Source of the DNA: a virus
Direction: 5' to 3' (one strand)
IMG/VR virus record: IMGVR_UViG_3300036832_001282
Coordinates: 1-57,610 of that record
DNA length: 57,610 nt
In this document: positions 26,098-40,475 of the stretch, in pieces
Layout of the letters: each line of letters starts with the position of its first letter
Numbering within the stretch: position 1 is the stretch's first letter
The notes under the pieces: model-generated
Database searches by the model: none
What the model saw: the letters and a program-made list of their open reading frames with translations, nothing else
Told to the model about the DNA's origin: nothing
Program-made: the position numbers and the translations under genes

Positions 26098-27612
26098 TCA
26101 GCCAGTTTCAGTTTGAAATTGTTCAAACAACCCACGCAATTCCAGCGTCGGTCCACGCGATCCATCACTTAGCAACGGCACTGCCACGAAATTCTGCCGA
26201 TCAATCGACCAGCCTTTCAACACAATTGCCTTACCCGGTTCACCTTGTGGACCCTGTAAGCCGCGCTCACCCTTCTCACCGGCAATGCCGCGCTGGCCTT
26301 GCCGTGCGATCATTTGCCAATCAGGGCCGGGACAAGAACCAGGGTTATCACAACGCGAAATAAAACTCGCACCATTACAAACCGTGATGTCGAGTTGCTG
26401 ATACTTCACTTCGGCATCATAAGTACCGCGCACCTGCGGCGTGCGCGCATCTTGACCACCAGCCGCAATACAAATCCAATCCGCACTTGTACCCGGTTGC
26501 AGACCAGTATCTACACTTGCCTGAAATGTACTACGCTCGTGACACACAACATCACCTGCATAGAACACGGTATCAGACTTCCATATCTTCACAACTGATA
26601 ATTTGCCAGGAAGCCCATCGGCACCACGCTCACCTTGCTCCCCGCGCGGACCAACAACCGATTCACCGCGCTCACCTTTCGGTCCGATCGCACCTTCACG
26701 CCCAGGCACACCCTCCAGACCTTGCTTACCCTGCTCACCTCGTTCACCGCGCTCCCCGCGCTCTCCGGACAGACCGCGCTCACCGCACGGTCCCATCGGA
26801 CCGATAGCGAAATCACCGGGATCACCCTTGCGGCCTTGCTCGCCTCGAACACCGGGCGCACCGTCACGCCCCGGCACGCCGTCACGACCAGCCGCACCAG
26901 CGAGTCCAACTTCGCCGCGCTCGCCCGGATCACCCTTTGGCCCTGGCTCACCGCGCGCACCATCGCGCCCAGGCAAACCACGTTCACCCATCGGACCCGC
27001 CGCTCCTTGTGGACCCGTTGTGCCCACAGGCCCCCTCGGCCCTTCAGGACCAATGATGCTCAGCCCCGGCGCTCCCTGCGGCCCCGAATCGCCTTTAATG
27101 GCCTCTCCCTTTGGCCCTGGCGGCCCCTGGAGCCCGGTTTCGCCCTTGACCCCATATCCCTGCGCCCCCTGCGGTCCAGCCTCTCCACGAAGCCCCTGCG
27201 CACCCTGCGGACCCATCGGTCCTGGCAGTCCCGACGCACCGCGCTCGCCTACCGGACCCATGACGCTCATACCGTCGCGTCCTGGCGCACCATCCGCACC
27301 ATCGTGAACCTGCCCCAGCCGCTCCTGCGCCAAAGTCATAAAATCCAGTAGTTTCTGACTCAGAATTGCCTCGAACGCCCGTTCGCGCTCGGCCTGCCGC
27401 ACCTCGAACGCCCGCTCACGCTCGGCGTCACGCACCCGCAACTCCGACACCAACTGCATCGCTTGTGACTGCATCAGCGCCTTTTCGCGCTGCCACGAAA
27501 CGCGTTCTTGCACCAGCGTCTCGGCAAGAGCTTCCCGCCATGCGTCAAGTAAAAGGTCGCTGGATTCGGGAAGCGGCATTGAGAAGTCGTTGTGTCTCTC
27601 TTCTAATGTCAT
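26098..27612 (-). CDS. Collagen-like protein with carbohydrate-binding-like segment
   Basis: 504 residues if translation starts at the ATG at 27612; the frame is open further upstream to 27858, but that part overlaps the portal gene and is compositionally like shadow. After a helical, charged N-terminus ([17 protein letters not shown], coiled coil), about 230 residues are Gly-X-Y repeats. Then comes a unit with [26 protein letters not shown]...W, resembling a CBM5/12 chitin-binding-type module, a Cys pair region, and another short Gly-X-Y stretch before a globular end. A fibrous trimer attached to the capsid or neck, possibly for surface adhesion. It lies between portal and connector genes and overlaps the portal 3' end by 68 bases. 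Confidence 0.8.
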
Positions 27613-29008
27613 CGCTGGAAGCCTTTGGCGGCGGTGGCTTTGGTTTAGTTGCATTGATCGGTGCAGCCGATGGCTGACCGGAAGCAGGCGGCGCTGGCGG
27701 CGGATGTGGCCCGCTGGCCGCACCCGCAGCACCGGGAGGAGTGATACCTGCAGCTGCTTCCAGCGGGACCACCTGTTGCTGCACGCGCGGTGAATCGCCG
27801 TAAGGAACGCTGTCGAGACTTTCCAGATTGCGTGCTTCGTTGGGTGAATAAATGCCACCCATGACGCCTTCTTTCAGTGCCTCAATGCGATCCTTCATCG
27901 CCGAACGCAGCAACGCGGCTGTCGAAAGCTCGGTGTACTCGTCAGGCTCACCCTTCAATTGAAACAAGCGATCAAACGCCTGCTCGATGTGATTGAGCGT
28001 AAAACCCAGACCCGTCGAAACCCAGAACTGCATCAGCGCTTCGGTCGACCCGAATGCCGTCCCGCCCAGACCAAGAAGCGCCAACGGAATACGAAACACC
28101 AATGCGATGTTCTGATTAGAGTACTTCAGTATCTCGGCCAACTGAGAATCACGACCGCCTGCTGACCACGGCACCACTTTCAAGCCATGCGTCAGAACTG
28201 GCGTCTTGCCTTGTGAAAGTCCTTTCGAACGTTCATCCCAGCGATCCTGCAACGCCTGCACCTGATCAATATCAAGATCAAGATCAGTCGAGATCACCGC
28301 CGCCGGTCGCGCTTGGTTCAAGTAAAAATTGATCTGTTGCGACGTGATCGCCCCTGTCGTCGTCAAGTCGTTGACCGCCGCCAACAATGGCGACTGACCC
28401 CACAACGGAAACGGATAACGTCGATCGGCATGCATCCGGATATGCAAGACATCGCGCTGCGGTACCAAGATCGGATACTCATCCACCAAATATTGCTGCA
28501 CCACCATGTTGCCGCCGAGGCGATAAAACACATCACCAGTCGGCGCGACCATTGGCTTGCATAGATTCGAATCCATCAAATGTAATTCGGTGACTTCGTA
28601 TCGGTCATTGCGCAACGCCAGCGCATAGGCGTTACCGTCGAGATACAATTGCCGTGTCGCATTGAGCATGAAATCGCTGCTGGTCTGATAAGAATTCGGC
28701 GTGCGCAGAATGCGCGACAATGCCGAATTCTTCACCCGGTCACGACCACCTTTGTTATTTGCCCGCCAATGATCTCCGGTACACATCGCAACAGTTTGCG
28801 AATAAGCCGACACGCAAGCTTCGACCATGGCCGACGCTGACCCAAGTCCACTCGGGTCCATTCCAAGTTGCCACCAATTCGACGGCGCACCATCCGGCAA
28901 CCAGCCGCCTGTAATCGGTAATTGGTACGGTCCAGGGCGAACTTCTCCTTCCACTGCGCGTGTGATGCTGCGCAATCCGCGAGCAAGCAATTGCCGCGCC
29001 GAGATCAT
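27545..29008 (-). CDS. Portal protein, HK97 family
   Basis: 487 residues. Matches HK97-type portals: [95 protein letters not shown], and a Pro-rich tail ([16 protein letters not shown]). The portal forms the dodecameric DNA gate. Here it lies downstream of the capsid gene, the reverse of the usual HK97 order. The start is preceded by AAAGG. Confidence 0.93.
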
Positions 29009-29471: not shown

Positions 29472-31778
29472 CTACCACGTGATAGCGCTCGTTGTAGCAA
29501 CCATTCCAGACCGCCTAAATGACCAATTAAGAGGGAAGATCATTCGAAGCGCCAATGAATCCGTCTGGAACAGTGAGCGTTGTGGAGAAGCGACAGTACC
29601 GGGTGAGCCGCTGACAAGGTCGGCCGGTGACGTATCTTCCATATGGAGCGTGGCCTGATCAGAAATCTCGAACCGCATGGCGTCGGCCTGCATCACCACG
29701 AAGTCGGCGGCGTCCACCAGGATCACCGTCTTCGGCGGCACCGTCGCCGAGTCGATGATCGGAATGTTGTTCAGCGTGCCACGGCCGACTTCGTCCTTGA
29801 ACGGGAAGACGCCCGTGTTAGGAGCGCTGACCAACGATGCTGACAGCATGTCCGCCGGGTTCATCAACCAAGCCGGTGAGCGGATGTTGCCGTAGGTGGC
29901 AGTGACCAACGCACCGATCATGTTCTTGATGTCGCCAACCACCGCCGCAATGCCGCCACCCGCCGTTGCACCCACTGGCGTCACGCCATTGAGAATGCCA
30001 GCCGGACGAATGGTGGTCGCCGGATTGTTGTCGAGCAAAACCGAATCCAACGAGATCGCCGTATCCTCTTGGATCGCCTGCCGCAGCACGCCCTCGATCG
30101 CAGGAATGCTGTGATCCGCCATCTCACGCGTCCACGTCGTGATCACGGCCATCTTCTTCGGAATGAAGGTCTGGCTGGTGAACGCGCCCTGCCGGACCGG
30201 GATCGCCATGCCTTCACCAACGAACGATCCGGCAATCGTCGGCGTCCGCGACCGGGTCGGCAACAGGATTTTCCCGGCCTGCCCGAAACTAAGCGACGTA
30301 CCCTTGGCCGCCAGTCGCGGGAAGATGCTTTGCGGAAGCAGCAAAGCCATCATGTCGGCGTAGATTTGATGCACCAGTTCTTGTGCCCAACCCACCACCG
30401 TGGTCATGGCAGGCGCTGACGGTGCGCGCATCGTCCAGTCGAGCACCACCTTGTGCGCTTCGTCATCACCATAGATGCGAAGCCGTTCGACATCCGGCAG
30501 CGTGCCCCGGATTTTCGCCATGCCATGGCAAACACCAGCATGCACGAGATAATCGATCGGCTCCCAGTCCTTCTTCGAGTGTTTAACGATGATCGGCGCG
30601 CTGACACCCTCATTAGTTGGCGTACGATATGGCACCAGCGAACGACGAGTCGGGGCACCATTATCTTCACGAGCGGTCGCGGCCCCTCGCGTCTTTTCAT
30701 AATCGACCAATGCAACATACTGATTCTGCAGTTGCTTGATCTGCGCATTCAGCAGCGTCGACTTCTCCAAGTCAGCGTCGCTAACATTGGTGTCGTCCTG
30801 CTTGCTGAAATGCTCGTCCAGTTCTTCCAGCTTATTGGCGATCTGCTGTTGCAGATCAATAATACGTTGCGAAAGCGGAACCGTGCTCATGGCTCGGTCC
30901 TTCCCTTGACTACGAGACGTGTCGCCTTGCTTGGCAATGAAATCCCGCCGTACGATGCCGCCCTGATTGCCATGCTTGGCGAAGACGACATCCATCGTGG
31001 CCGGACTAACACCCAGCGATTTGGCAACCGCCAGGGCATTCGGGTTGGCTGGCACACTCACCAGCGACGTTTCGAGCAGTTCCTGTTTGAGATAGCGCTG
31101 ACCGGCAAAACCGCCGACGTTCAGACTTTTAAGCGGCACCGCCTCGATCGGATGAAAACCAACCGAGACCGTACGCAGGATTCCAGCATTGACCAGCTTG
31201 CGTATCTCGTCGATGCGATCGGATGTCCCTTCCGGCGCAAGCTCCAGATGCCCGCGCAACGCGCCTTTTTCCACGCGCAAATTGTGCCAGCGACCAATCG
31301 GAAAATCGCTCTTGTGATTGAACAACGCAATCGGATTGTTCTTGAACGACTCGATATCCCAACCGGCGCTGCTGATGACATCGCCCATGCGATCGACAGT
31401 CTCGTCGCTCAACACGAATTCCATACCGCTCACAGTCGCACTATGCGACTTGTGCAAGACCGATTTATGCACTGCCGCTACAGCGGCACGATTCTCCTGA
31501 TAATCGGTCCACATCACCTGACATTCGTCTTCGTCCAGATCATCGGTGCAGCGATCCATGAACTCTTCATAAGTCTCGTCGTCATCCGGCGGATCAACAT
31601 TGTCATCACCGTTGTCTTTTGCTTTTTTCGGCGGTTCGCCACCGTGCTCGGCGCGCCACATCGAAAGGCATGCCGCCACCGCCTGCTCTTGCGGCCGTTT
31701 GCCGTCGCCCATCATCTCGGGCACACACCTTGCGCTGAAATCACTTTGCGATTCACCCGGCTTTGGCTTCATCGGCAT
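29472..31778 (-). CDS. Prohead protease - scaffold - HK97 major capsid protein fusion
   Basis: 768 residues, GGAGG before the ATG. Residues about 110-255 are an S78-type (HK97 gp4-like) prohead protease with likely catalytic His155 (FNHKSDFPIGRW) and Ser205 (LRTVSVGF). Residues 297-350 are a coiled-coil delta/scaffold segment (LSQRIIDLQQQIANKLEELDEHF). Residues about 395-768 are the HK97-fold capsid (SAPAMTTVVGWAQEL, GMAIPVRQ, LDNNPATTIRPAG). An internal ATG at 30890 (Met297) is preceded by AAGGGAAGG, so a separate 472-residue scaffold-capsid product is plausible. Confidence 0.9.
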   Translation of the reverse strand: MPMKPKPGESQSDFSARCVPEMMGDGKRPQEQAVAACLSMWRAEHGGEPPKKAKDNGDDNVDPPDDDETYEEFMDRCTDDLDEDECQVMWTDYQENRAAVAAVHKSVLHKSHSATVSGMEFVLSDETVDRMGDVISSAGWDIESFKNNPIALFNHKSDFPIGRWHNLRVEKGALRGHLELAPEGTSDRIDEIRKLVNAGILRTVSVGFHPIEAVPLKSLNVGGFAGQRYLKQELLETSLVSVPANPNALAVAKSLGVSPATMDVVFAKHGNQGGIVRRDFIAKQGDTSRSQGKDRAMSTVPLSQRIIDLQQQIANKLEELDEHFSKQDDTNVSDADLEKSTLLNAQIKQLQNQYVALVDYEKTRGAATAREDNGAPTRRSLVPYRTPTNEGVSAPIIVKHSKKDWEPIDYLVHAGVCHGMAKIRGTLPDVERLRIYGDDEAHKVVLDWTMRAPSAPAMTTVVGWAQELVHQIYADMMALLLPQSIFPRLAAKGTSLSFGQAGKILLPTRSRTPTIAGSFVGEGMAIPVRQGAFTSQTFIPKKMAVITTWTREMADHSIPAIEGVLRQAIQEDTAISLDSVLLDNNPATTIRPAGILNGVTPVGATAGGGIAAVVGDIKNMIGALVTATYGNIRSPAWLMNPADMLSASLVSAPNTGVFPFKDEVGRGTLNNIPIIDSATVPPKTVILVDAADFVVMQADAMRFEISDQATLHMEDTSPADLVSGSPGTVASPQRSLFQTDSLALRMIFPLNWSFRRSGMVATTSAITW
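30888..30903 (-). promoter_or_regulatory. Internal ribosome-binding site and ATG within the protease-capsid gene
   Basis: AAGGGAAGGACCGAGCC precedes ATG at 30890-30888, exactly at the boundary between protease and coiled-coil scaffold. It would allow many capsid copies per protease, which a strict fusion would not. Confidence 0.5.
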
Positions 31779-31789
31779 TGCTGCCTCCT

Positions 31790-32368
31790 TCAGTTATTCC
31801 ACGGATGCAATGGATCAGTCGGTCGGCCTGATGCATCGCAGCCACGAACGACACGTTTGACCGTATTGGTACGCTCGTGCTGAAACCATTCGTCGATCAG
31901 GCGTTCATGCAATTCACGCACAACCTGCCGTTCCGGATCATTGCGCACGCGCTCGATCAGTTCGGCCTTCGACGGCACCAGCAAGATCATGTCGCCTTCG
32001 ACGACAGCAAGTTTCTCACGCCACCATGCGCGAAGCTTTTCCGATGCCGCCGTGATGATCACCCAGGCCACATGCTCGCGTGGCGCACACGCCAATTTAG
32101 CCAATCGCCTGTTGCGCTCGGTCAACAGCAGCGGCGTGAAATCAGACGAACGATCACGGCCCAGGCTCCAATCCTTGGCGATCGTGTCGATGTCAATCAG
32201 ACTATCCTCTGGTCGCTTGTGCTCACGCACATAAGTCGACTTGCCAGCGGCAGGCGGACCGCACACCAGCACGACACGGCAATTCGGCTTCGGCAGGCGT
32301 TCCGGCCGCGCCAGATCACCGTACGGACGCTGCAGCGTCCTACCTCTTTTTTGCGCTCTGCTGAACAA
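31790..32368 (-). CDS. P-loop kinase-like protein (AAA_33 type), start uncertain
   Basis: Walker A GPPAAGKST, preceded by a strand (CRVVLVCGP) and followed by LIDIDTIAKDW; a second strand HVAWVIITAASEKLR and a DMILLVPSKAELIERVRND segment. This fits small zeta-toxin/polynucleotide-kinase-like P-loop proteins often found near phage head genes. There is no ATG between 32340 and the Walker A strand: candidates are TTG at 32368 (given here, 192 aa) or a GTG at 32524, which would overlap the neighbour fully and add a compositionally odd 52 residues. Substrate unknown; possible RNA or nucleotide kinase. Confidence 0.6.
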   Translation of the reverse strand: MFSRAQKRGRTLQRPYGDLARPERLPKPNCRVVLVCGPPAAGKSTYVREHKRPEDSLIDIDTIAKDWSLGRDRSSDFTPLLLTERNRRLAKLACAPREHVAWVIITAASEKLRAWWREKLAVVEGDMILLVPSKAELIERVRNDPERQVVRELHERLIDEWFQHERTNTVKRVVRGCDASGRPTDPLHPWNN

Positions 32369-32537
32369 GATGTTTAGCCCGATGCTTGGCTCGGATGGGA
32401 GCCATGATCGTTTCATCAATCGGATTATCAACTGGACCCAAGATGGCAGCATGCAACGCGGCATCCTGCTTGTTGCCGTTCTCGTCCTCGTAAAAGAATT
32501 CGTTTGAAACCGTGTCAGAATCACGCGGCGATGGCAC
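32340..32537 (-). CDS. Small acidic protein, unknown
   Basis: 65 residues starting at GTG (32537), chosen because GAAGGAGAA lies eight bases upstream. Sequence PRDSDTVSNEFFYEDENGNKQDAALHAAILGPVDNPIDETIMAP... then a basic end (KHRAKHLVQQSAKKR). It overlaps the end of the 991-residue polyvalent gene by 17 bases and runs into the kinase-like gene. No family recognised. Confidence 0.5.
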   Translation of the reverse strand: MPSPRDSDTVSNEFFYEDENGNKQDAALHAAILGPVDNPIDETIMAPIRAKHRAKHLVQQSAKKR

Positions 32538-35496
32538 GCGGCTTCTCCTTCTTGACGCGACCGACATACTGCTTGAAACGGCTATAGGATTCCGGGTCTT
32601 TGAGATTCAAGCGCCCACGCCAGCCGCTGTTCAACAGCAATTCCTTGCCACGCGGTGAATCAGCAATCTTCCAGATCGACTTCGGATCATCGCTGCGTAC
32701 CAGCTTCAGCAACTCGTCATCCTTGGTCTTCGGCAATTCCATTTCAGTCTGCGGCGGCTCCTCGTCCTCATCCGGCGGAAGATCAATGTCCGCCATGCCG
32801 TAATCTATTGCGTATTGCAGACGCTGACGATCATCCATCTGATCCCAGTACTCGCCCTGATATTCTTCTACGCTATCATTCAAATAACTCGGTGGATCGA
32901 CATCACCCGCATCACTCTCGGCCTTACCGTTGAACGTTCTAATAACGACCGATTCCAGCTGACTACGCATGTCTTCAGTCAATCGTTCCGAAAGCTCGGC
33001 GGGTTTGATCCCAGGCAAATTCATTTGATCAGGACTCGGCCCGCCGATCGGCTCTTGCAGCTTCTTATCATCCCATGACAGATCAGGATCGTCACGTCCC
33101 TCGCCAGAACTAGATTCGTATTCCTCGATTTTCAACGCATCGAACAACTGTTTGTCAGTATACGGAATCGCGGCGTCACCATTCTCGTCACGTATGTCAC
33201 GCACCTCATTGAGCGCGTCAGTAAACCACACTGGTATCTCTTGCATGCGATTAAAATCATCTGCAAGCGTCCGCTTAGCTTCTTCCAACGCCTGACCACT
33301 ATCACGCCAGCTGTCTACTTCACTCTCGTAAAACTCATCATGTGTGCGAGCCATCCAACGCTGTTGAACCGCCTCCTGCTGATCGTCGCCAAGCATGCTC
33401 CAGTCATCGGCTTCTATGGTATTGCCACTACGCGGCGATCCGGTTGAGCTATATAATTTTCCAGCCAACGTACTACGTAATGACGCCCACGCCGCTGGCG
33501 TAGGCACGTAGCCGTACTTAGCCCAGGCATAGCCACCAACATCAATATTGGCCGTGACATTCACTTCGTTGATGCCAAGCGCCTCATACACTTCGACATT
33601 GCCTGCCAGCACTTTCTTGCCAACATTGGCGTGAGTCTTGCTTTTTTGCAGCTTAAAATACGCGCTGTAGGCCGAGTGTTTGACCGGATCGATATGCCGC
33701 TCATAGTTACCGATTTTGTTGCCATTACTGTCATACAAATACCCCCTCACATCAAAATGCCCGCCATCGTAACTGATAGTCATATCGGACGGTACGCCAC
33801 CAAGAAACACATCCTTGAACGCAGCTGGCTCAATACCGATCTGATCATTCCATTTTTTGATGATCGCCTGCTCACCACCAGACGGAGCACTGATTTTCAC
33901 TTTAGCCTTGTCAAAATCTTCCTTAGCCACCGGCTTCGGGCTCTTGCTCAGCTTCGGTTTGCTGATTGGCTCAGATACTGATGATGCTGATGGTATCGGT
34001 TTCGGAATCGATATCGGTTTTGGCGTAGCCGGTTTTACACCCGGCACCTTGCCGCCACCGCTGCCACCGCCACCATCGGTCCACTTGCCAGACTCATCGC
34101 GCGGCTCATCAGACACATCATGCGCCGCCCTCGGCACCGTGATCATGATATTGTCGAAACCATTGGCCAAATGGCCGTTGGCGTAAAAGAACCGGTACGC
34201 GACTTCGGCAAATTTCTGGTAAGTCGCCGGATCGAGCAGCCGTTGCGCATCCTTCAGCGAGATCAGCTGATAGCCCTTGGACCCTGCCGGTTTCTTGGCA
34301 ATGCCCTGATCCTTGGTCCACTTATCGGCGATCTCGATCAGCTTGGTGATGCCGATATCAACACGTGCGATCTTAACTTCACGGCCGTCGTTCTTCAGGT
34401 TGCCGTCTTCGGCATCAATCCCCAACTGCCCGGCCCAGGTATGATGCCCGTCGAGAATGTAGTCATCTTTTGAAATCACCAACCGCTTGTAAAAACCACG
34501 ATCCTTAATGCGCGCCATCTGCGCCGCGACCTTAGTACCGTCGATCTCGCTTTGAGTGGCGCGAAGATTGGCGGATTTCTCACGCCCCTTCTCGATATCG
34601 TAACCTTCTTTCTTGAGGTACTTGATGAATTCCTTGGTGCGCTTGGCCGGGATCACCGGCATCTCAGCGCGAGGAATGCCGATCTGATCCGCACAGAATA
34701 AGTTGGTGCCTGCAATACTGACGTTGCAGAGATTGAAAACCGGCGCAGTCTCGCCATGCTCAGCCATCTCGGCCGCCGTCTCGCCGAGACGCTTGATCAG
34801 CGTCGAGACTTGCTTGACTTGATTTAGCTCGACCTTGCGATTCTCGAACAGCGCCCGCTGCGCATCATAAACATTGCTGGTGTGAATGGTACCCTTGCTG
34901 TCGAGATAAGCATGCGGCGAATACCCCTTACCGGGATGCTTGGCACCCTTTGGCGGCTTGGTTTGCTGAACGCTGCCACTGCCGCCACCGCCGCCATCGG
35001 TCCACTTACCGCCTTCGTCGCGCGGCTCGTCGGACACATCATGCGCGAATTTACATTGTTTTTTCAAACCACCAAAATCATGATCAATGACTTTTATATT
35101 TTCTGGTTTAACCGGTTCAGTCAGTACATGCTCAAATCCTGCTCCAGAAGTTTGTTGTGCTGATGACGGCACTTTCACCGAAAGCAAAGCAAGTTGTGTA
35201 TCTTCATCAAATTGCTCCCCTAACCAATTCGTTATAGCGTCTTCAGCCGCTACTATCGACGTAAACGTATAAATTGCAGGTTGCGGCTCTTCAAGAAGAC
35301 TAGCTCTATCACCAATTGTTGGCTGAAGCCCATTCTGCATAATATTCGGAACATTTTCAGTTGGCGTCACATGATAAAGTGTTATGTGACTGCCACCACT
35401 ATCGCTGCCACCACCACCACTACCACCACCACCCGTCCACTTACCGCCTTCGTCACGCGGCTCGTCAGACACATCGTGCGCAGCTCGTGTCAGCAC
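32521..35496 (-). CDS. Polyvalent protein: ART-like, ParB-like and unknown modules joined by repeated linkers
   Basis: 991 residues, GTG start. Three copies of AHDVSDEPRDEGGKWT (6-21, 151-166; third at 458-473 with one change), each followed by a Gly/Ser linker, divide the protein. Module 1 (about 37-145: HITLYHVTPTENVPNIMQNGLQP, IYTFTS) resembles a small ADP-ribosyltransferase-like or KptA-like fold. Module 2 (about 180-440: KRLVISKDDYILDGHHTWAGQLGI) has the DGHH core of ParB/Srx-like proteins. Module 3 (about 500-900) contains VNVTANIDVGGYAWAKYGYVPTPAAW and is unassigned. Phage polyvalent proteins with such domains are known; the repeats may be protease sites. It is adjacent to the prohead protease. 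Confidence 0.75.
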   Translation of the reverse strand: MLTRAAHDVSDEPRDEGGKWTGGGGSGGGGSDSGGSHITLYHVTPTENVPNIMQNGLQPTIGDRASLLEEPQPAIYTFTSIVAAEDAITNWLGEQFDEDTQLALLSVKVPSSAQQTSGAGFEHVLTEPVKPENIKVIDHDFGGLKKQCKFAHDVSDEPRDEGGKWTDGGGGGSGSVQQTKPPKGAKHPGKGYSPHAYLDSKGTIHTSNVYDAQRALFENRKVELNQVKQVSTLIKRLGETAAEMAEHGETAPVFNLCNVSIAGTNLFCADQIGIPRAEMPVIPAKRTKEFIKYLKKEGYDIEKGREKSANLRATQSEIDGTKVAAQMARIKDRGFYKRLVISKDDYILDGHHTWAGQLGIDAEDGNLKNDGREVKIARVDIGITKLIEIADKWTKDQGIAKKPAGSKGYQLISLKDAQRLLDPATYQKFAEVAYRFFYANGHLANGFDNIMITVPRAAHDVSDEPRDESGKWTDGGGGSGGGKVPGVKPATPKPISIPKPIPSASSVSEPISKPKLSKSPKPVAKEDFDKAKVKISAPSGGEQAIIKKWNDQIGIEPAAFKDVFLGGVPSDMTISYDGGHFDVRGYLYDSNGNKIGNYERHIDPVKHSAYSAYFKLQKSKTHANVGKKVLAGNVEVYEALGINEVNVTANIDVGGYAWAKYGYVPTPAAWASLRSTLAGKLYSSTGSPRSGNTIEADDWSMLGDDQQEAVQQRWMARTHDEFYESEVDSWRDSGQALEEAKRTLADDFNRMQEIPVWFTDALNEVRDIRDENGDAAIPYTDKQLFDALKIEEYESSSGEGRDDPDLSWDDKKLQEPIGGPSPDQMNLPGIKPAELSERLTEDMRSQLESVVIRTFNGKAESDAGDVDPPSYLNDSVEEYQGEYWDQMDDRQRLQYAIDYGMADIDLPPDEDEEPPQTEMELPKTKDDELLKLVRSDDPKSIWKIADSPRGKELLLNSGWRGRLNLKDPESYSRFKQYVGRVKKEKPRAIAA

Positions 35497-35500
35497 TGAC

Positions 35501-36046
35501 TTAGCTTTCCATCACGCAGAGCAACTGCTCGATCGAGCGCGCTTCATGCCGACACGTACGATTAGTTCCCACAAGCCATTCGTTGAAAGCGCGTTGTTCG
35601 TGATTAGTTTCGATCCAAAATTCATCAAGCACAAGTATCGAACCGTAAACGAGCCGTGACCCGATATTCTTGAGCACGGTTTTGGTCGAACTGTAGAGAT
35701 CACAATCGATGTGAACGAGCGCGACATCGCCTTTATGAGTTTCCAAAAACTTCGGCAACGTATCCTCGAACATCCCGACAATCAGTTCAGCATTATTCGG
35801 TACTTCCGGAATCGGACAACTGAAATGTCCTTTCTGGTAGCTGCTCCACGGTTCCGGCAGTCCTTTGAAACTGTCAAAACCATAGATCATCCGATTCAAC
35901 AACGGCACACTACCTGCCAGACAACGAAGCGTCGTGCCAGTCGCAACACCGAATTCAAGTATCAAACCTTCTGGTGCAAGCGCTGCAGCATGCCGCAGCA
36001 CTTGAAACCGATCGACGTACCAAACCGTATGAGACGGTGTGCGCAT
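35501..36046 (-). CDS. TylF/MycF-type O-methyltransferase
   Basis: 181 residues from ATG 36046, which overlaps the stop of the glycosyltransferase as ATGA. SAM-binding motif LILEFGVATGTTLRCLA, then YGFDSFKGLPEPW, a metal-binding-like HIDCDLYSSTKTVL and LVLDEFW, all typical of the macrocin-type sugar O-methyltransferases. In phages these are rare. Together with the glycosyltransferase it probably methylates a sugar on a virion or surface glycan. Confidence 0.85.
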   Translation of the reverse strand: MRTPSHTVWYVDRFQVLRHAAALAPEGLILEFGVATGTTLRCLAGSVPLLNRMIYGFDSFKGLPEPWSSYQKGHFSCPIPEVPNNAELIVGMFEDTLPKFLETHKGDVALVHIDCDLYSSTKTVLKNIGSRLVYGSILVLDEFWIETNHEQRAFNEWLVGTNRTCRHEARSIEQLLCVMES

Positions 36047-37251
36047 CACAACTTCACTAGTGCGCTGGCCCAATCACCAAGATCGTCCTGCTTACAGACT
36101 TTTATGTTCTGATAAAACGGCGACAGCCAACGCCAACTGGACCAGTAGCTCAGCAACAACTTGATGTTCGGATGCCCGATCGCACCGGCAAGATGAATCG
36201 CAGCCGTGTCAATTGAAACTATCGTATCGCAACATTCCATCAGTGCTGCACAGTCGGCAAAATCTTCGAAGTCAAACTGTTCGATACCTGCATCGGCGCA
36301 ACGTTGCTGCACGCTGACCAGACGCACGCCGGGCAACGCTTCGACCAGCAGCGGCAGCGGCAGCGCTCGCGGATAATCACCGCTATGCGCCACGCGTGGC
36401 GACCACGCCACGCCAACAAGACGGCCATGCGTATTGCCAAGCGTGCGCCGCCATTTGTCGACCAAGATCGGATTGGTTTGCAAATACGAATCAAGCGGCA
36501 CCGTGTCTGGCTGCTGCCACAGCATCCGCAACAGAAACAATAGTGAACAGAAATAATCAGCAGGCACCGGCTCGTTCACGACTGGCGCAACTTGCTCGCC
36601 CAGACGTTTCAATTCCGGCGGCAACCATAGTATCACTTCAGCGCCCATCGACCTGAGCATGCCAACGTAACGCAGACACATGATCGAATCGCCGAAACCG
36701 TGATCGTGAATCAGCAAAAGACGCTTGTCATGAAGCGGCTCACCGCACCAGCGCCGCAGCCCGAATTCAACACACTCAAGATATTGCGGCCGGGTAAACA
36801 ACGAGCCGCTGGTCTCGATCGCCGTGGCATACAAATCAAAACCTTCGCGCCAATGACCCAATTCTAATAAACACATTCCAGAATTATATTTTGCAGCTAG
36901 TGTATCAGCATACGATGCTGCGGTTTGAAACGCTACCAGTGCATTCAGCAACTGATCACCGCTGCGCATAGCCTCGCGCCCAGCATCGAGAAAATGTACG
37001 TACTTGTCGATCACTCCGGGCGATGTCTGTTTCGGCACCGCACGATAACCGATATGTTGCCCGCCACGATGAATCGCGATCTTCGAGCCGAATGGAATCG
37101 TGGCAAGGTGCCCATTTGCTGTTCGGACTGACAACACTTCGCCGTCAGTAGTCAGCGCTCGCCAACCATCAACGGTTTCTTCGACCGCCAGAATTGGCAG
37201 TAGGTCTGGCGGATCAAAATTTGCGTAACTTTGTTTGCTTGCCATAGGCAT
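36046..37251 (-). CDS. TPR-containing glycosyltransferase (GT41/GT9-like)
   Basis: 401 residues. The N-terminal third has TPR-like helices (DQLLNALVAFQTAASYADTLAAKYNSGMCLLELGHWREGFDLY). The catalytic part has KRLLLIHDHGFGDSIMCLRYVGMLRSMGAEVILWLPPELKRLGEQ and the sugar-nucleotide site CDTIVSIDTAAIHLAGAIGHPNIKLL, typical of SPINDLY-like/GT9-like enzymes. It probably attaches a sugar to a protein or glycan. It lies directly after the terminator of the second capsid gene and the five-base-periodic stretch. Confidence 0.82.
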   Translation of the reverse strand: MPMASKQSYANFDPPDLLPILAVEETVDGWRALTTDGEVLSVRTANGHLATIPFGSKIAIHRGGQHIGYRAVPKQTSPGVIDKYVHFLDAGREAMRSGDQLLNALVAFQTAASYADTLAAKYNSGMCLLELGHWREGFDLYATAIETSGSLFTRPQYLECVEFGLRRWCGEPLHDKRLLLIHDHGFGDSIMCLRYVGMLRSMGAEVILWLPPELKRLGEQVAPVVNEPVPADYFCSLLFLLRMLWQQPDTVPLDSYLQTNPILVDKWRRTLGNTHGRLVGVAWSPRVAHSGDYPRALPLPLLVEALPGVRLVSVQQRCADAGIEQFDFEDFADCAALMECCDTIVSIDTAAIHLAGAIGHPNIKLLLSYWSSWRWLSPFYQNIKVCKQDDLGDWASALVKL

Positions 37252-37445: not shown

Positions 37446-38525
37446 TCACTTCCAATTTGGCGTAAGCCAACTAATACCTCTTGGATCACGTAGTGCCCAC
37501 GACACTGGCCATCGAATTTTCAACGCCAGCGAATCAGTTTGATACATCGATTTTCGCGGTCCAGCTGTCGGCACTGCTGATGGCACAGAATCCATATGCA
37601 GCGCTGCAGCAGTTGCAACTTCGACATGCGGAGCAGGATCAAGCGCGGCCACTAATGCAGCAGGTGCAATTGCGAGCATATCGCCGCCAATCGAATTTGT
37701 TCCAAGCACAACAACATTGCTGGCTTCGAAAATGAACCGCAACGCCATTGAAACAGCACGACCGGGTGAGACAACAATTAGATACGGTCCATTTTGACCA
37801 ACTGATGAAACAGCGTTAATCAACGATGTTAAATCTTCAGCAAATGCTTCAACGGAGTCAGCATTATTACTTGCTGTCAACGCAGCGATGCCGTTACGCA
37901 AACCAGCTGGTCGCGCCGCTGTTGCCGGATTGACATCGAATAACGTGTCATCGAGCGCACAACCAGCAGAACGCATCAAGGCATCGCCGATCAGCTGCTC
38001 GGCATTACTGGATTCAATCATTTCACGTGTTAGCACCGCAATTGATGCAAGCTTGAACGGCGTCAACAACGCTGGTGTTGCTGATAATTGGCGAACTGGA
38101 ATTGGATCACCTTCAGCAACAAATCCTGAATTAGCTCCTGATGCACTGAATCCTGGTGCACTGATTGAAGCACGGCCAGCAAAATCAAGTAACAATGAAC
38201 GTTTGAATACCTCGGCCGCCGCTGTCGCCGGGCCAAGACCAGCCAGCATGTCATTGACAGTTCGTTGCGCTAATTCTGCAGCCCAAGTAGATACCGTCGT
38301 CATTGCAGGCGCAGAAGCAGCGCGCTCGATCACTTCCAACGTGAGCTTGTCGCTTGGCCACATCAACGCTGCCGCTTCTTGCGGAGACATCTTGCGTACA
38401 ATGCCGACTGCTTTCGCTGTCAGCGCCCGCACGAAAGTGTTGCCTTGCGGCAGCGGCAGCGGGTTGCGCTTGAAAGCGCGACCTGAAAAAGCAGATGTCC
38501 CGATGTATTCCATCGCCTGTGCCAT
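37446..38525 (-). CDS. Second HK97-type major capsid protein (paralogue)
   Basis: 359 residues, GGAG before the ATG. It shares its architecture and motifs with the capsid part of the fusion gene: ASAPAMTTVSTWAAEL, EGDPIPVRQ, VLTREMIESSN, DVNPATAARPAGLRNG, and the end YQTDSLALKIRWPVSWALRD. It has no protease and only a short N-terminal segment. Two HK97-fold shell proteins in one phage could build mixed capsids (hexamer or penton specialisation), or this could be a decoy or older copy. The spacing to the terminase is 15 bases. Confidence 0.85.
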   Translation of the reverse strand: MAQAMEYIGTSAFSGRAFKRNPLPLPQGNTFVRALTAKAVGIVRKMSPQEAAALMWPSDKLTLEVIERAASAPAMTTVSTWAAELAQRTVNDMLAGLGPATAAAEVFKRSLLLDFAGRASISAPGFSASGANSGFVAEGDPIPVRQLSATPALLTPFKLASIAVLTREMIESSNAEQLIGDALMRSAGCALDDTLFDVNPATAARPAGLRNGIAALTASNNADSVEAFAEDLTSLINAVSSVGQNGPYLIVVSPGRAVSMALRFIFEASNVVVLGTNSIGGDMLAIAPAALVAALDPAPHVEVATAAALHMDSVPSAVPTAGPRKSMYQTDSLALKIRWPVSWALRDPRGISWLTPNWK

Positions 38526-38540
38526 TGAACTGAAACTCCG

Positions 38541-40475
38541 CTATCCGATGAGTCGCGCTACGTCGATCTTCGGCTTCGCCAGTGGCGCGACACCCAAAGC
38601 CATCGCTAAAGCTACGAGTCCATCAATGCGGCCGGTCGAACGCTTCTTCGACAAGCGTCTGTTACTTGAATCCTTGCCGACATCACGCACGCCGTCGCGG
38701 CCTTCAACGATAACAGCATTTGCAACGCACATATTTAAAATCGGATTGTTACCGTGTGCGATCTCACGATCAAGAATGCGGCCTTCCAACTCGCGCAGCG
38801 CTGGCGACATCGAGGCGGTACCCTGACCAAACTCAACCCATTGCTCATCGATGATGCGCTCAGGAATGCCGCCTTGCACCAGCCACGGCCGCAGATGCTT
38901 GAAATTCCAGCGATCGAATGCGACCTTGCGGATTTTGTGAACTGATAGAATGTTCAGTATCTGCGGCACCACCTTGTCGTAGCTAACGGCGTTGCCGTCG
39001 ACCGTGTTGAGCAGACCTTCCTTGTACCATTGATCATAGGGCACGTGATCGGTGCGCGAGCGCTCGGCCAGTCCTTCATGCGGCAACCAGAACCACGGCC
39101 GCACATGCCAGACCCGATCAATTTTTCCAACAAGAACCATCGAAGTTAGATCGTTAGTTTCCGACAGATCGAGCCCGGCATAGACTTCCTTGCATTGCGT
39201 CAGATCACCAACTGGCATACCACACTTGGCCCACAACGCAGGCGCGATGAACTGAGAGATCGCCTCAACGCGCTGGTTCAGGATCAGGTTTCGAAACTCA
39301 GCCTCACGCGACGGCATGCGGCGAGCATCTTCCGCCATCGCCCGCACTTCCACCGGGTTCAAGAAGTGACCAAACGCCGGGTTCGCCAGCTTGATGGTGG
39401 CTTCTTCGAATGGCGGCAACGTAATCGGCGCAGTGTAGAGCCGGCAGACCACGCGCGGATCGTGACCGGCAATCGCATCCTCGATCAACACCGACAACAA
39501 ATCTGTGTCAGATGGAGCCTGCGTCGAGATGATAATCGACAATGGATTCTCTTGCGCGCCAGTCGCAGTCTCCAGCGCCTCGTACAGCTTCGAACGCGGA
39601 CCACGCACTTGACCTAACTCATCATGGACGATGAAACTTGGCGACAAACCATAAGCCGTCGAGGCTTCCGCCGATAGCGCGCGATAGTGCGTACCGACAC
39701 CGAAACATACTAATTCTTTGGTGCTTTCCTTGACCGTCACAGTGCCACGCAAGGCTGGCGACATGCGCACGATCTTGGCCGCCAGCATGAAGATCAACGC
39801 CGCCTGCTCGCGCGATTGCGCGGTCGAGAACAGCTGGCTGTTCGGCCGCGCCATCGGCCCGCAGAGATGCACCAGCAACAACACTGCAGCGAGCGCAGAC
39901 TTGCCGTTCTTACGACCAAAGCTGAGAATGGCGCGGCGGGTGCCGTGCGGATTGTCATAGATGTTGCGAAGCTCGGTCTTCTGCCATTCGTCGAGCCGGA
40001 AGGGTTGACCAATCAGCTTGCCTTCCGGGATGTAACACTTGCGCTCGATCCAATCGATGATGTCGTCACCAGTGGGTTTGCGATTGAATTCCGGTGCCAG
40101 CGTCGTCGGCGCTGAAGCGGGCGGCGGCCGGAAGAATGACACCACCACATCTGACACAGCTTCGGGCTCGTCCTCTGCAACCTCTTCGGCCCTGATCTCT
40201 TCGTCCTCCTCGAACACAACAGCAGCCTGCGCCGCCGGGCGCGGCGCTGGTGGTCGCGGTCGCGGCGGCGGCGGTGGCGGTGGCGGCTTTGGCGCTTTGG
40301 GCGGCTTCGGCTTCGGCGGCTTTGGTGGCTGCGGCTTCGGCGTCTCATCGCCGTCGTCATCTTCGTCGTCGCCCAACACATTGGGCAACAACTCGGTGTC
40401 GTCCGTCTCGCCCTGCCAATCCCGTATCTTCCGGCCACGCGGCCGGTTCATCCAATCGTCGCGGAGACGCGCCAC
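38541..40475 (-). CDS. terL: Terminase large subunit (TerL)
   Basis: 644 residues, GTG start preceded by AGGA. ATPase domain with Walker A GRKNGKS (187-193), Walker B FIVHDE (281-286) and coupling motif STQAP (about 318). Nuclease domain with the acidic GLDLSETND (Asp436) and a late RIDGLVALAMA. The first 130 residues are an unusual low-complexity addition: acidic (DDEDDDGDE), then poly-Pro with PKP repeats (about 48-80), then another acidic stretch. Packages DNA into proheads with the small subunit and portal. Confidence 0.95.
   Translation of the reverse strand: MARLRDDWMNRPRGRKIRDWQGETDDTELLPNVLGDDEDDDGDETPKPQPPKPPKPKPPKAPKPPPPPPPPRPRPPAPRPAAQAAVVFEEDEEIRAEEVAEDEPEAVSDVVVSFFRPPPASAPTTLAPEFNRKPTGDDIIDWIERKCYIPEGKLIGQPFRLDEWQKTELRNIYDNPHGTRRAILSFGRKNGKSALAAVLLLVHLCGPMARPNSQLFSTAQSREQAALIFMLAAKIVRMSPALRGTVTVKESTKELVCFGVGTHYRALSAEASTAYGLSPSFIVHDELGQVRGPRSKLYEALETATGAQENPLSIIISTQAPSDTDLLSVLIEDAIAGHDPRVVCRLYTAPITLPPFEEATIKLANPAFGHFLNPVEVRAMAEDARRMPSREAEFRNLILNQRVEAISQFIAPALWAKCGMPVGDLTQCKEVYAGLDLSETNDLTSMVLVGKIDRVWHVRPWFWLPHEGLAERSRTDHVPYDQWYKEGLLNTVDGNAVSYDKVVPQILNILSVHKIRKVAFDRWNFKHLRPWLVQGGIPERIIDEQWVEFGQGTASMSPALRELEGRILDREIAHGNNPILNMCVANAVIVEGRDGVRDVGKDSSNRRLSKKRSTGRIDGLVALAMALGVAPLAKPKIDVARLIG

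What the first reader, a model, noticed from the sequence alone, without database searches (positions are those of the whole stretch)
32521..35496. Polyvalent protein with three identical linker repeats beside the prohead protease
AHDVSDEPRDEGGKWT occurs at residues 6-21 and 151-166 exactly and 458-473 with one change, each before a Gly/Ser linker, separating an ART-like, a ParB-like and an unknown module. Polyvalent phage proteins with ART and ParB-like domains are described and thought to be delivered with DNA. Inference: the repeats are cleavage sites, possibly for the neighbouring prohead protease, releasing separate effectors inside the capsid or host. Module 3 (GGYAWAKYGYVPTPAAW) is unassigned.
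Basis: partly seen in the sequence, partly recalled or inferred. Interest (0 to 1): 0.72.

Follow-up and report, generated by a model that had tools for sequence, protein, structure and literature searches.

The report
Portable tag on phage virion cargo
A phage protein that strings together three enzyme-like modules carries the same 16-residue tag in front of each one, and that tag turns out to precede many unrelated effector modules beside the head genes of many phages, so it is probably a general label for proteins packed into the virus particle.

Summary
In detail: the 991-aa minus-strand ORF at 32521-35496 carries AHDVSDEPRDE(G/S)GKWT plus a Gly linker three times. The copies differ by 4-10 bases, almost all synonymous. 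The repeat is not private. A consensus [FY]D[PE]x[QEH]PRDExG[RK]WT-GGG, and a second form HPRxPAGSPEGGQF, precede unrelated modules in more than 100 viral contigs, with 1-9 copies per protein. The modules include ART, MuF fusions, zeta toxin, topoisomerase IB, pyrophosphatase, 2H, NUDIX and nuclease toxins. Tags lie a median 2.9 kb from portal, MuF or protease genes (10.3 kb if random). ParB and GNAT homologues carry one 40-110 aa upstream in 29 of 41 cases. In close relatives the ParB module is fused to the protease-capsid polyprotein. Single-module proteins often keep the tag near the N-terminus, and its middle loop varies in length. Both facts fit a virion packaging or docking tag better than a protease site; cleavage is not excluded. 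Nothing shows packaging or cleavage experimentally. I found no paper that describes the tag.

The parts
32521..35496 (-). Polyvalent protein, 991 aa: tag1-ART-tag2-ParB-like-tag3-GNAT
   Evidence: ORF and translation; PHROG 2859 over aa 253-467; folds
35434..35481 (-). Tag copy 1, aa 6-21 AHDVSDEPRDEGGKWT, followed by GGGGSGGGGSDSGG linker
35059..35391 (-). Module 1, ART-fold domain (aa ~36-146), His/Tyr/Glu positions conserved with Bacillus phage homologues
   Evidence: AF2 pLDDT 78.5, Foldseek best Tpt1/KptA E 6e-4, VIA Z 9.1; homologues at 35% identity; a related module follows a tag in L246
34999..35046 (-). Tag copy 2, aa 151-166 AHDVSDEPRDEGGKWT, followed by DGGGGGSGS linker
34252..34929 (-). 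Module 2, ParB-like domain with DGHH motif (aa ~190-415)
   Evidence: tblastn to DarB-like and other phage proteins E 1e-6 to 1e-10; PHROG 2859 1.6e-27, ParB PHROGs E 0.03-0.07; weak PDB profile match to ParB/Srx-like proteins E 0.07-0.3
34078..34125 (-). Tag copy 3, aa 458-473 AHDVSDEPRDESGKWT, followed by Gly then Pro/Lys/Ser linker
32524..33894 (-). Module 3, GNAT acetyltransferase fold (aa ~560-670 plus a C-terminal strand at ~960) with a long mainly helical insertion
   Evidence: AF2 pLDDT 79; top PDB matches all GNATs, VIA Z 10.9
31790..32524 (-). Neighbour: P-loop kinase-like (AAA_33) gene
   Evidence: Pfam E 1.3e-8; a relative lies upstream of the tagged genes in L003
29472..31778 (-). 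Neighbour: S78 prohead protease fused to HK97-type major capsid protein; no tag
   Evidence: Pfam, PHROG 617 E 5e-77, tag scan
27545..29008 (-). Neighbour: portal protein
   Evidence: Pfam PF04860 E 1.6e-61
38541..40475 (-). Neighbour: large terminase
   Evidence: Pfam and PHROG

Best explanation
The protein is virion cargo: a chain of three effector modules (ART, ParB-like, GNAT with insertion) made late with the head proteins, packed into the prohead and ejected with the DNA to modify host targets early in infection. The repeat is a portable sorting or docking tag, one copy N-terminal to each cargo module and joined to it by a flexible Gly linker. It binds a head component (portal, capsid interior or scaffold; which one is unknown) and so loads the module into the particle. 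Multi-module proteins arose by fusion of singly tagged genes, and each copy stays under selection because each module is held or released on its own. Shown by sequence: the tag, its recurrence, its N-terminal placement, the conserved spacing, the head-cluster context, the module folds, and fission/fusion of the same modules. Inferred: packaging, receptor binding, ejection and enzyme targets.
For: Tags occur 1-9 per protein; 139 distinct tagged proteins share nothing else. Those proteins match MuF, portal, S78 protease and capsid, and effector families: ART exoenzyme, ART-PolyVal, zeta toxin, topoisomerase IB, pyrophosphatase, NUDIX, 2H, CdiA RNase A, ParB; in bacterial genomes also Tox-REase-5, Ntox50 and AHH. 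Distance to portal/MuF/S78: median 2.9 kb against 10.3 kb for random placement, 0 of 2000 draws as close. ParB 15/21 and GNAT 14/20 non-redundant homologues have a tag 40-110 aa upstream; a random position in the GNAT-homologue ORFs gives 12%. The last tag is followed by 73 or more residues in all but two of 103 complete ORFs; 46 of 86 complete single-tag ORFs have it in the first 110 codons. In L003/L005 the tagged ParB module is the N-terminal part of the protease-capsid polyprotein. Isolate phages: Konstantine gp15 and Nocardia P3.1 'maturation protease' begin with the tag; Sixama gp73 next to the portal has the F form. Precedent: 30 N-terminal residues of P1 DarB suffice for capsid targeting (PMC9024508).
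Against: No virion proteomics or binding data. Some fused modules belong to portal, MuF or capsid chains, which are in the head anyway and would not need a targeting tag. Chromosomal tagged toxins in Rhizobiales, one with a possible downstream immunity gene, lie in stretches with no obvious phage genes, so the tag may not be strictly virion-related. The survey loci were selected by the motif, and 12 of 50 records showed no portal, MuF or S78 hit.
Confidence: 0.55

Rival explanations
1. The repeats are prohead-protease cleavage sites: the polyprotein is cut at each tag during head maturation and releases separate effectors.
For: Tags lie between all modules of multi-module proteins, including portal-tag and MuF-tag fusions where release would be needed. 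Many records carry S78 (16 of 50) or DUF2213 (9 of 50), the latter a putative head protease family from memory. T4 targeting sequences are themselves cut off (general knowledge). Iyer et al. propose processing of polyvalent proteins (PMC5512222).
Against: Tags lie within the first ~15 residues of some single-module proteins. The loop inside the motif varies by 5-6 residues. No tag in the window's protease-capsid fusion. About half of the records have no detected protease, including one with 16 tags.
Confidence: 0.2
2. The tag is a module seam: a conserved stretch where effector cassettes recombine, like pre-toxin motifs of polymorphic toxins, with little function of its own.
For: The same modules are found fused and separate, in different orders.
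Against: Tag copies keep their residues while the DNA drifts by synonymous changes. Nine tags in one protein keep R, D, G, R and W in every copy while its ART paralogues are about 45% identical. The tag also sits at extreme N-termini with no seam.
Confidence: 0.12
3. The tag acts at ejection or in the host (for example threading, unfolding or docking to the tail or a host factor) rather than in packaging.
For: One tag per module, flexible linker, N-terminal placement; crAss001 cargo is extruded partly unfolded (PMC10172136).
Against: No direct evidence; the tag is also present in proteins annotated as head maturation protease, which need not be ejected.
Confidence: 0.13

Closest known systems
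Phage polyvalent proteins (Iyer et al. 2017, PMC5512222)
   Same: Multi-domain proteins with ART, ParB, GNAT, InPase, 2H and similar domains in head/portal contexts, predicted to be packaged and injected
   Different: My term searches of that paper found no mention of a repeated tag before each module
T4 and P1 capsid targeting sequences (T4 IPIII; P1 DarB N-terminal 30 aa)
   Same: Short N-terminal signal that directs unrelated cargo into the head
   Different: For P1 the authors found no consensus among Dar N-termini (PMC9024508); here a strong consensus recurs across unrelated proteins and phages, also internally before every module
MuF polymorphic toxins (Jamet et al. 2017, PMC5576092)
   Same: Head protein fused to variable toxin/effector domains; some tagged proteins are MuF-tag-effector
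   Different: Here the delivery mark is a short motif that occurs with or without a MuF domain, and several effectors can be chained
Encapsulin cargo-loading peptides (general knowledge, not tested)
   Same: Short conserved peptide on a flexible linker that loads cargo into an HK97-fold shell
   Different: No sequence relation tested; receptor here unknown; tag is N-terminal to cargo

Membership tests
Polyvalent phage proteins | Two or more distinct effector-type domains in one chain | tested here: met
   ART fold, ParB-like and GNAT fold in one 991-aa ORF
Polyvalent phage proteins | Encoded with virion/packaging genes | tested here: met
   TerL, portal, S78-capsid within 6 kb on the same strand
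Polyvalent phage proteins | Packaged in the virion and delivered | not testable with these tools
   needs virion proteomics
ART superfamily (module 1) | ART fold | tested here: met
   Foldseek and VIA top matches Tpt1/KptA, then other ARTs; coordinates from AF2 only
ART superfamily (module 1) | H-Y/R-S-E type catalytic residues | tested here: inconclusive
   LYHVT, Y in PAxYxF and a C-terminal Glu are conserved with Bacillus homologues, but activity is unknown and the Glu is not kept in distant members
ParB-like superfamily (module 2) | Sequence or fold match to ParB/sulfiredoxin-like domain | tested here: inconclusive
   DGHH motif invariant; PHROG ParB E 0.03-0.07; no ParB Pfam hit in 17 homologues; PDB profile E 0.07; homologous by tblastn to DarB-like proteins. 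Fold not predicted
GNAT superfamily (module 3) | GNAT fold | tested here: met
   VIA Z 10.9 over 147 residues, all listed matches GNATs
Capsid targeting sequence (T4/P1 type) | Short N-terminal stretch before cargo | tested here: met
   N-terminal to each module; conserved spacing
Capsid targeting sequence (T4/P1 type) | Sufficient to bring a reporter into the head | not testable with these tools
   needs a packaging experiment
Prohead protease cleavage site | Contiguous site shared with the capsid processing junction | tested here: inconclusive
   No tag in the window's protease-capsid fusion; the real junction site is unknown

The most novel reading that the evidence does not exclude
A general, portable virion-cargo label (two interchangeable forms, PRDExG[RK]W and HPRxPAGSPEGGQF) shared by many unrelated phage lineages, recognised by a conserved head component, which marks effector modules for packaging and allows whole strings of effectors (up to nine tagged modules in one 2,912-aa protein) to be loaded and delivered.
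Probability: 0.45. Interest if true: 0.88.

Novelty: new variant of a known kind. Interest (0 to 1): 0.74.

Why it matters
How most phages select internal proteins for packaging is unknown outside T4 and P1, and no shared signal was known even among the P1 Dar proteins. A sequence-recognisable tag would let virion-delivered effectors be found by scanning genomes, including many unannotated modules, would give a testable route for loading chosen proteins into phage heads, and would tie polyvalent proteins, MuF toxins and chromosomal nuclease toxins of Rhizobiales into one delivery scheme.

Tried and rejected
Tag strings in the literature: no paper holds any of the twelve forms searched; keyword searches gave only T4, P1 and giant-phage work. 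PDB profile search with the tag: only chance matches of a few residues. tblastn of the window tag in isolate phages: none; a consensus query found weak but instructive hits, and form B none. Close relatives of module 1 in viral contigs: essentially none by pattern, solved through Bacillus phage homologues. PADLOC: no hit. A head-protease requirement: S78 16/50, DUF2213 9/50, Mu-like 1/50, ClpP 1/50, so a protease is neither universal in these (possibly partial) records nor excluded. Acid-labile Asp-Pro cleavage within FDP was considered and dropped, because many tags have DE, SE or DV instead. About a third of the bacterial-genome pattern hits are not real tags (33 of 98 loci lack a convincing tag ORF).

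Full report
Observation. The minus-strand ORF 32521-35496 encodes 991 aa with AHDVSDEPRDE(G/S)GKWT at aa 6, 151 and 458, each followed by a Gly-rich linker. The DNA copies are 77-84% identical over 75 nt. Copies 1 and 2 differ only at four third-codon positions; copies 1 and 3 at ten positions, eight of them third. So the amino-acid sequence is held by selection.

Modules. Pfam gives no hit for the whole protein. Module 1 has 35%-identical stand-alone homologues in Bacillus phages with conserved His, Tyr and Glu. Its AF2 model (pLDDT 78.5) matches ART-fold proteins, best the RNA 2'-phosphotransferase Tpt1/KptA (Foldseek E 6e-4, VIA Z 9.1). Module 2 belongs to PHROG 2859 and is homologous to ParB-like regions of many phages, among them DarB-like proteins and a structural protein of Pseudomonas phage 8P. 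Direct profile evidence for the ParB fold is weak.

The repeat is a widespread tag. Translated, most lie in long ORFs in the form [KR]x[FY]D[PE]x[QEH]PRDExG[RK]WT-[DS]GGG. 139 distinct tagged proteins align only at the tag; 27 of them carry two to five copies, and larger ones carry more: a 2,912-aa protein has nine (seven ART-like paralogues at about 45% identity and two HExxH-type modules, my reading of the sequence), and one contig has 16. A second form, [FW]DESxHPRxPAGSPEGGQF-GGG, precedes the same ParB and GNAT modules in other phages, sometimes in the same protein as the first form.

What it labels. Tagged proteins match portal, MuF, S78 protease and capsid families, and effector families: ADP-ribosyltransferases, zeta toxin, topoisomerase IB, inorganic pyrophosphatase, NUDIX, 2H phosphoesterase, CdiA-type RNase A, ParB. 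In bacterial genomes they include Tox-REase-5, Ntox50 and AHH nuclease toxins. Where records hold a portal, MuF or S78 gene (38 of 50), the tag lies a median 2.9 kb from it, against 10.3 kb expected; no random draw of 2000 came as close. Tags are N-terminal to modules: homologues of modules 2 and 3 have a tag 40-110 aa upstream in 15/21 and 14/20 non-redundant cases, against 12% for random positions, and the tag is almost never at a C-terminus.

Fission and fusion. In L003/L005 the GNAT module is its own tagged ORF, and the tagged ParB module is the N-terminal part of the S78 protease-capsid polyprotein. In L092 the two modules are separate tagged ORFs; in L095 and the window they are fused. 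A related ART module follows a tag in L246. The window protein is thus best seen as a fusion of three singly tagged cargo genes.

Mechanism. A cleavage site alone does not explain tags near the start of single-module proteins (46 of 86 complete single-tag ORFs within the first 110 codons; at residue 8-11 in Konstantine gp15 and Nocardia P3.1), a core loop that varies by 5-6 residues, or records with tags and no detected protease (fragments are possible). A packaging or docking tag explains all of these, the head context and the per-module repetition, and it has precedents: T4 CTS, and P1 DarB, whose N-terminal 30 residues suffice for packaging while no consensus is known (PMC9024508). Cargo docking on a portal has been seen in crAss001 (PMC10172136). 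Targeting and later trimming can coexist. Packaging, receptor and targets are inferred.

Host. Module 3 relatives occur in a Bradyrhizobium genome (L137), so an alphaproteobacterial host is plausible for the window, as inference only.

Limits. Survey loci were chosen by the motif; most are metagenomic and unannotated; some pattern hits are chance (33 of 98 bacterial loci). Module 2 was not folded. No experiment supports packaging yet.

Noticed in passing
window 37446-38525 and 29472-31778: Two capsid-type genes: a stand-alone major-capsid-like protein (PHROG 617, E 2e-17) and the protease-capsid fusion.
   Followed up: no
window 29472-31778, N-terminal ~100 aa: Two copies of another recurrent motif (PGESQSDFSARCV...QAVAACLSMW and DETYEEFMDRC...CQVMW) before the S78 protease, also seen in L003.
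   Followed up: no
window 35501-37251: TylF-like methyltransferase and GT9-like glycosyltransferase genes inserted between capsid and cargo genes; similar genes near tagged genes in L034, L040, L095.
   Followed up: partly
L163, L169, L193, L222 (Rhizobiales and other bacterial genomes): Small chromosomal proteins with a helical N-terminus, the tag, then nuclease-toxin-like domains, in L163 with a small downstream ORF that might be an immunity gene; no obvious phage genes nearby. Delivery route unexplained.
   Followed up: partly
L227 1659-10394: 2,912-aa ORF with nine tags, seven tandem ART-like paralogues and two HExxH-type metallopeptidase-like modules.
   Followed up: partly
L226 (G016:C1:14500-32500): Two ORFs of 1,516 and 2,032 aa with five and seven tags and mutually unrelated modules, including 2H phosphoesterase and pyrophosphatase.
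   Followed up: partly
window 32524-33894: GNAT fold interrupted by a long, mainly helical insertion of unknown role, conserved in relatives.
   Followed up: partly
window 26098-27858: Collagen-repeat tail-fibre-like protein overlapping the portal gene end.
   Followed up: no
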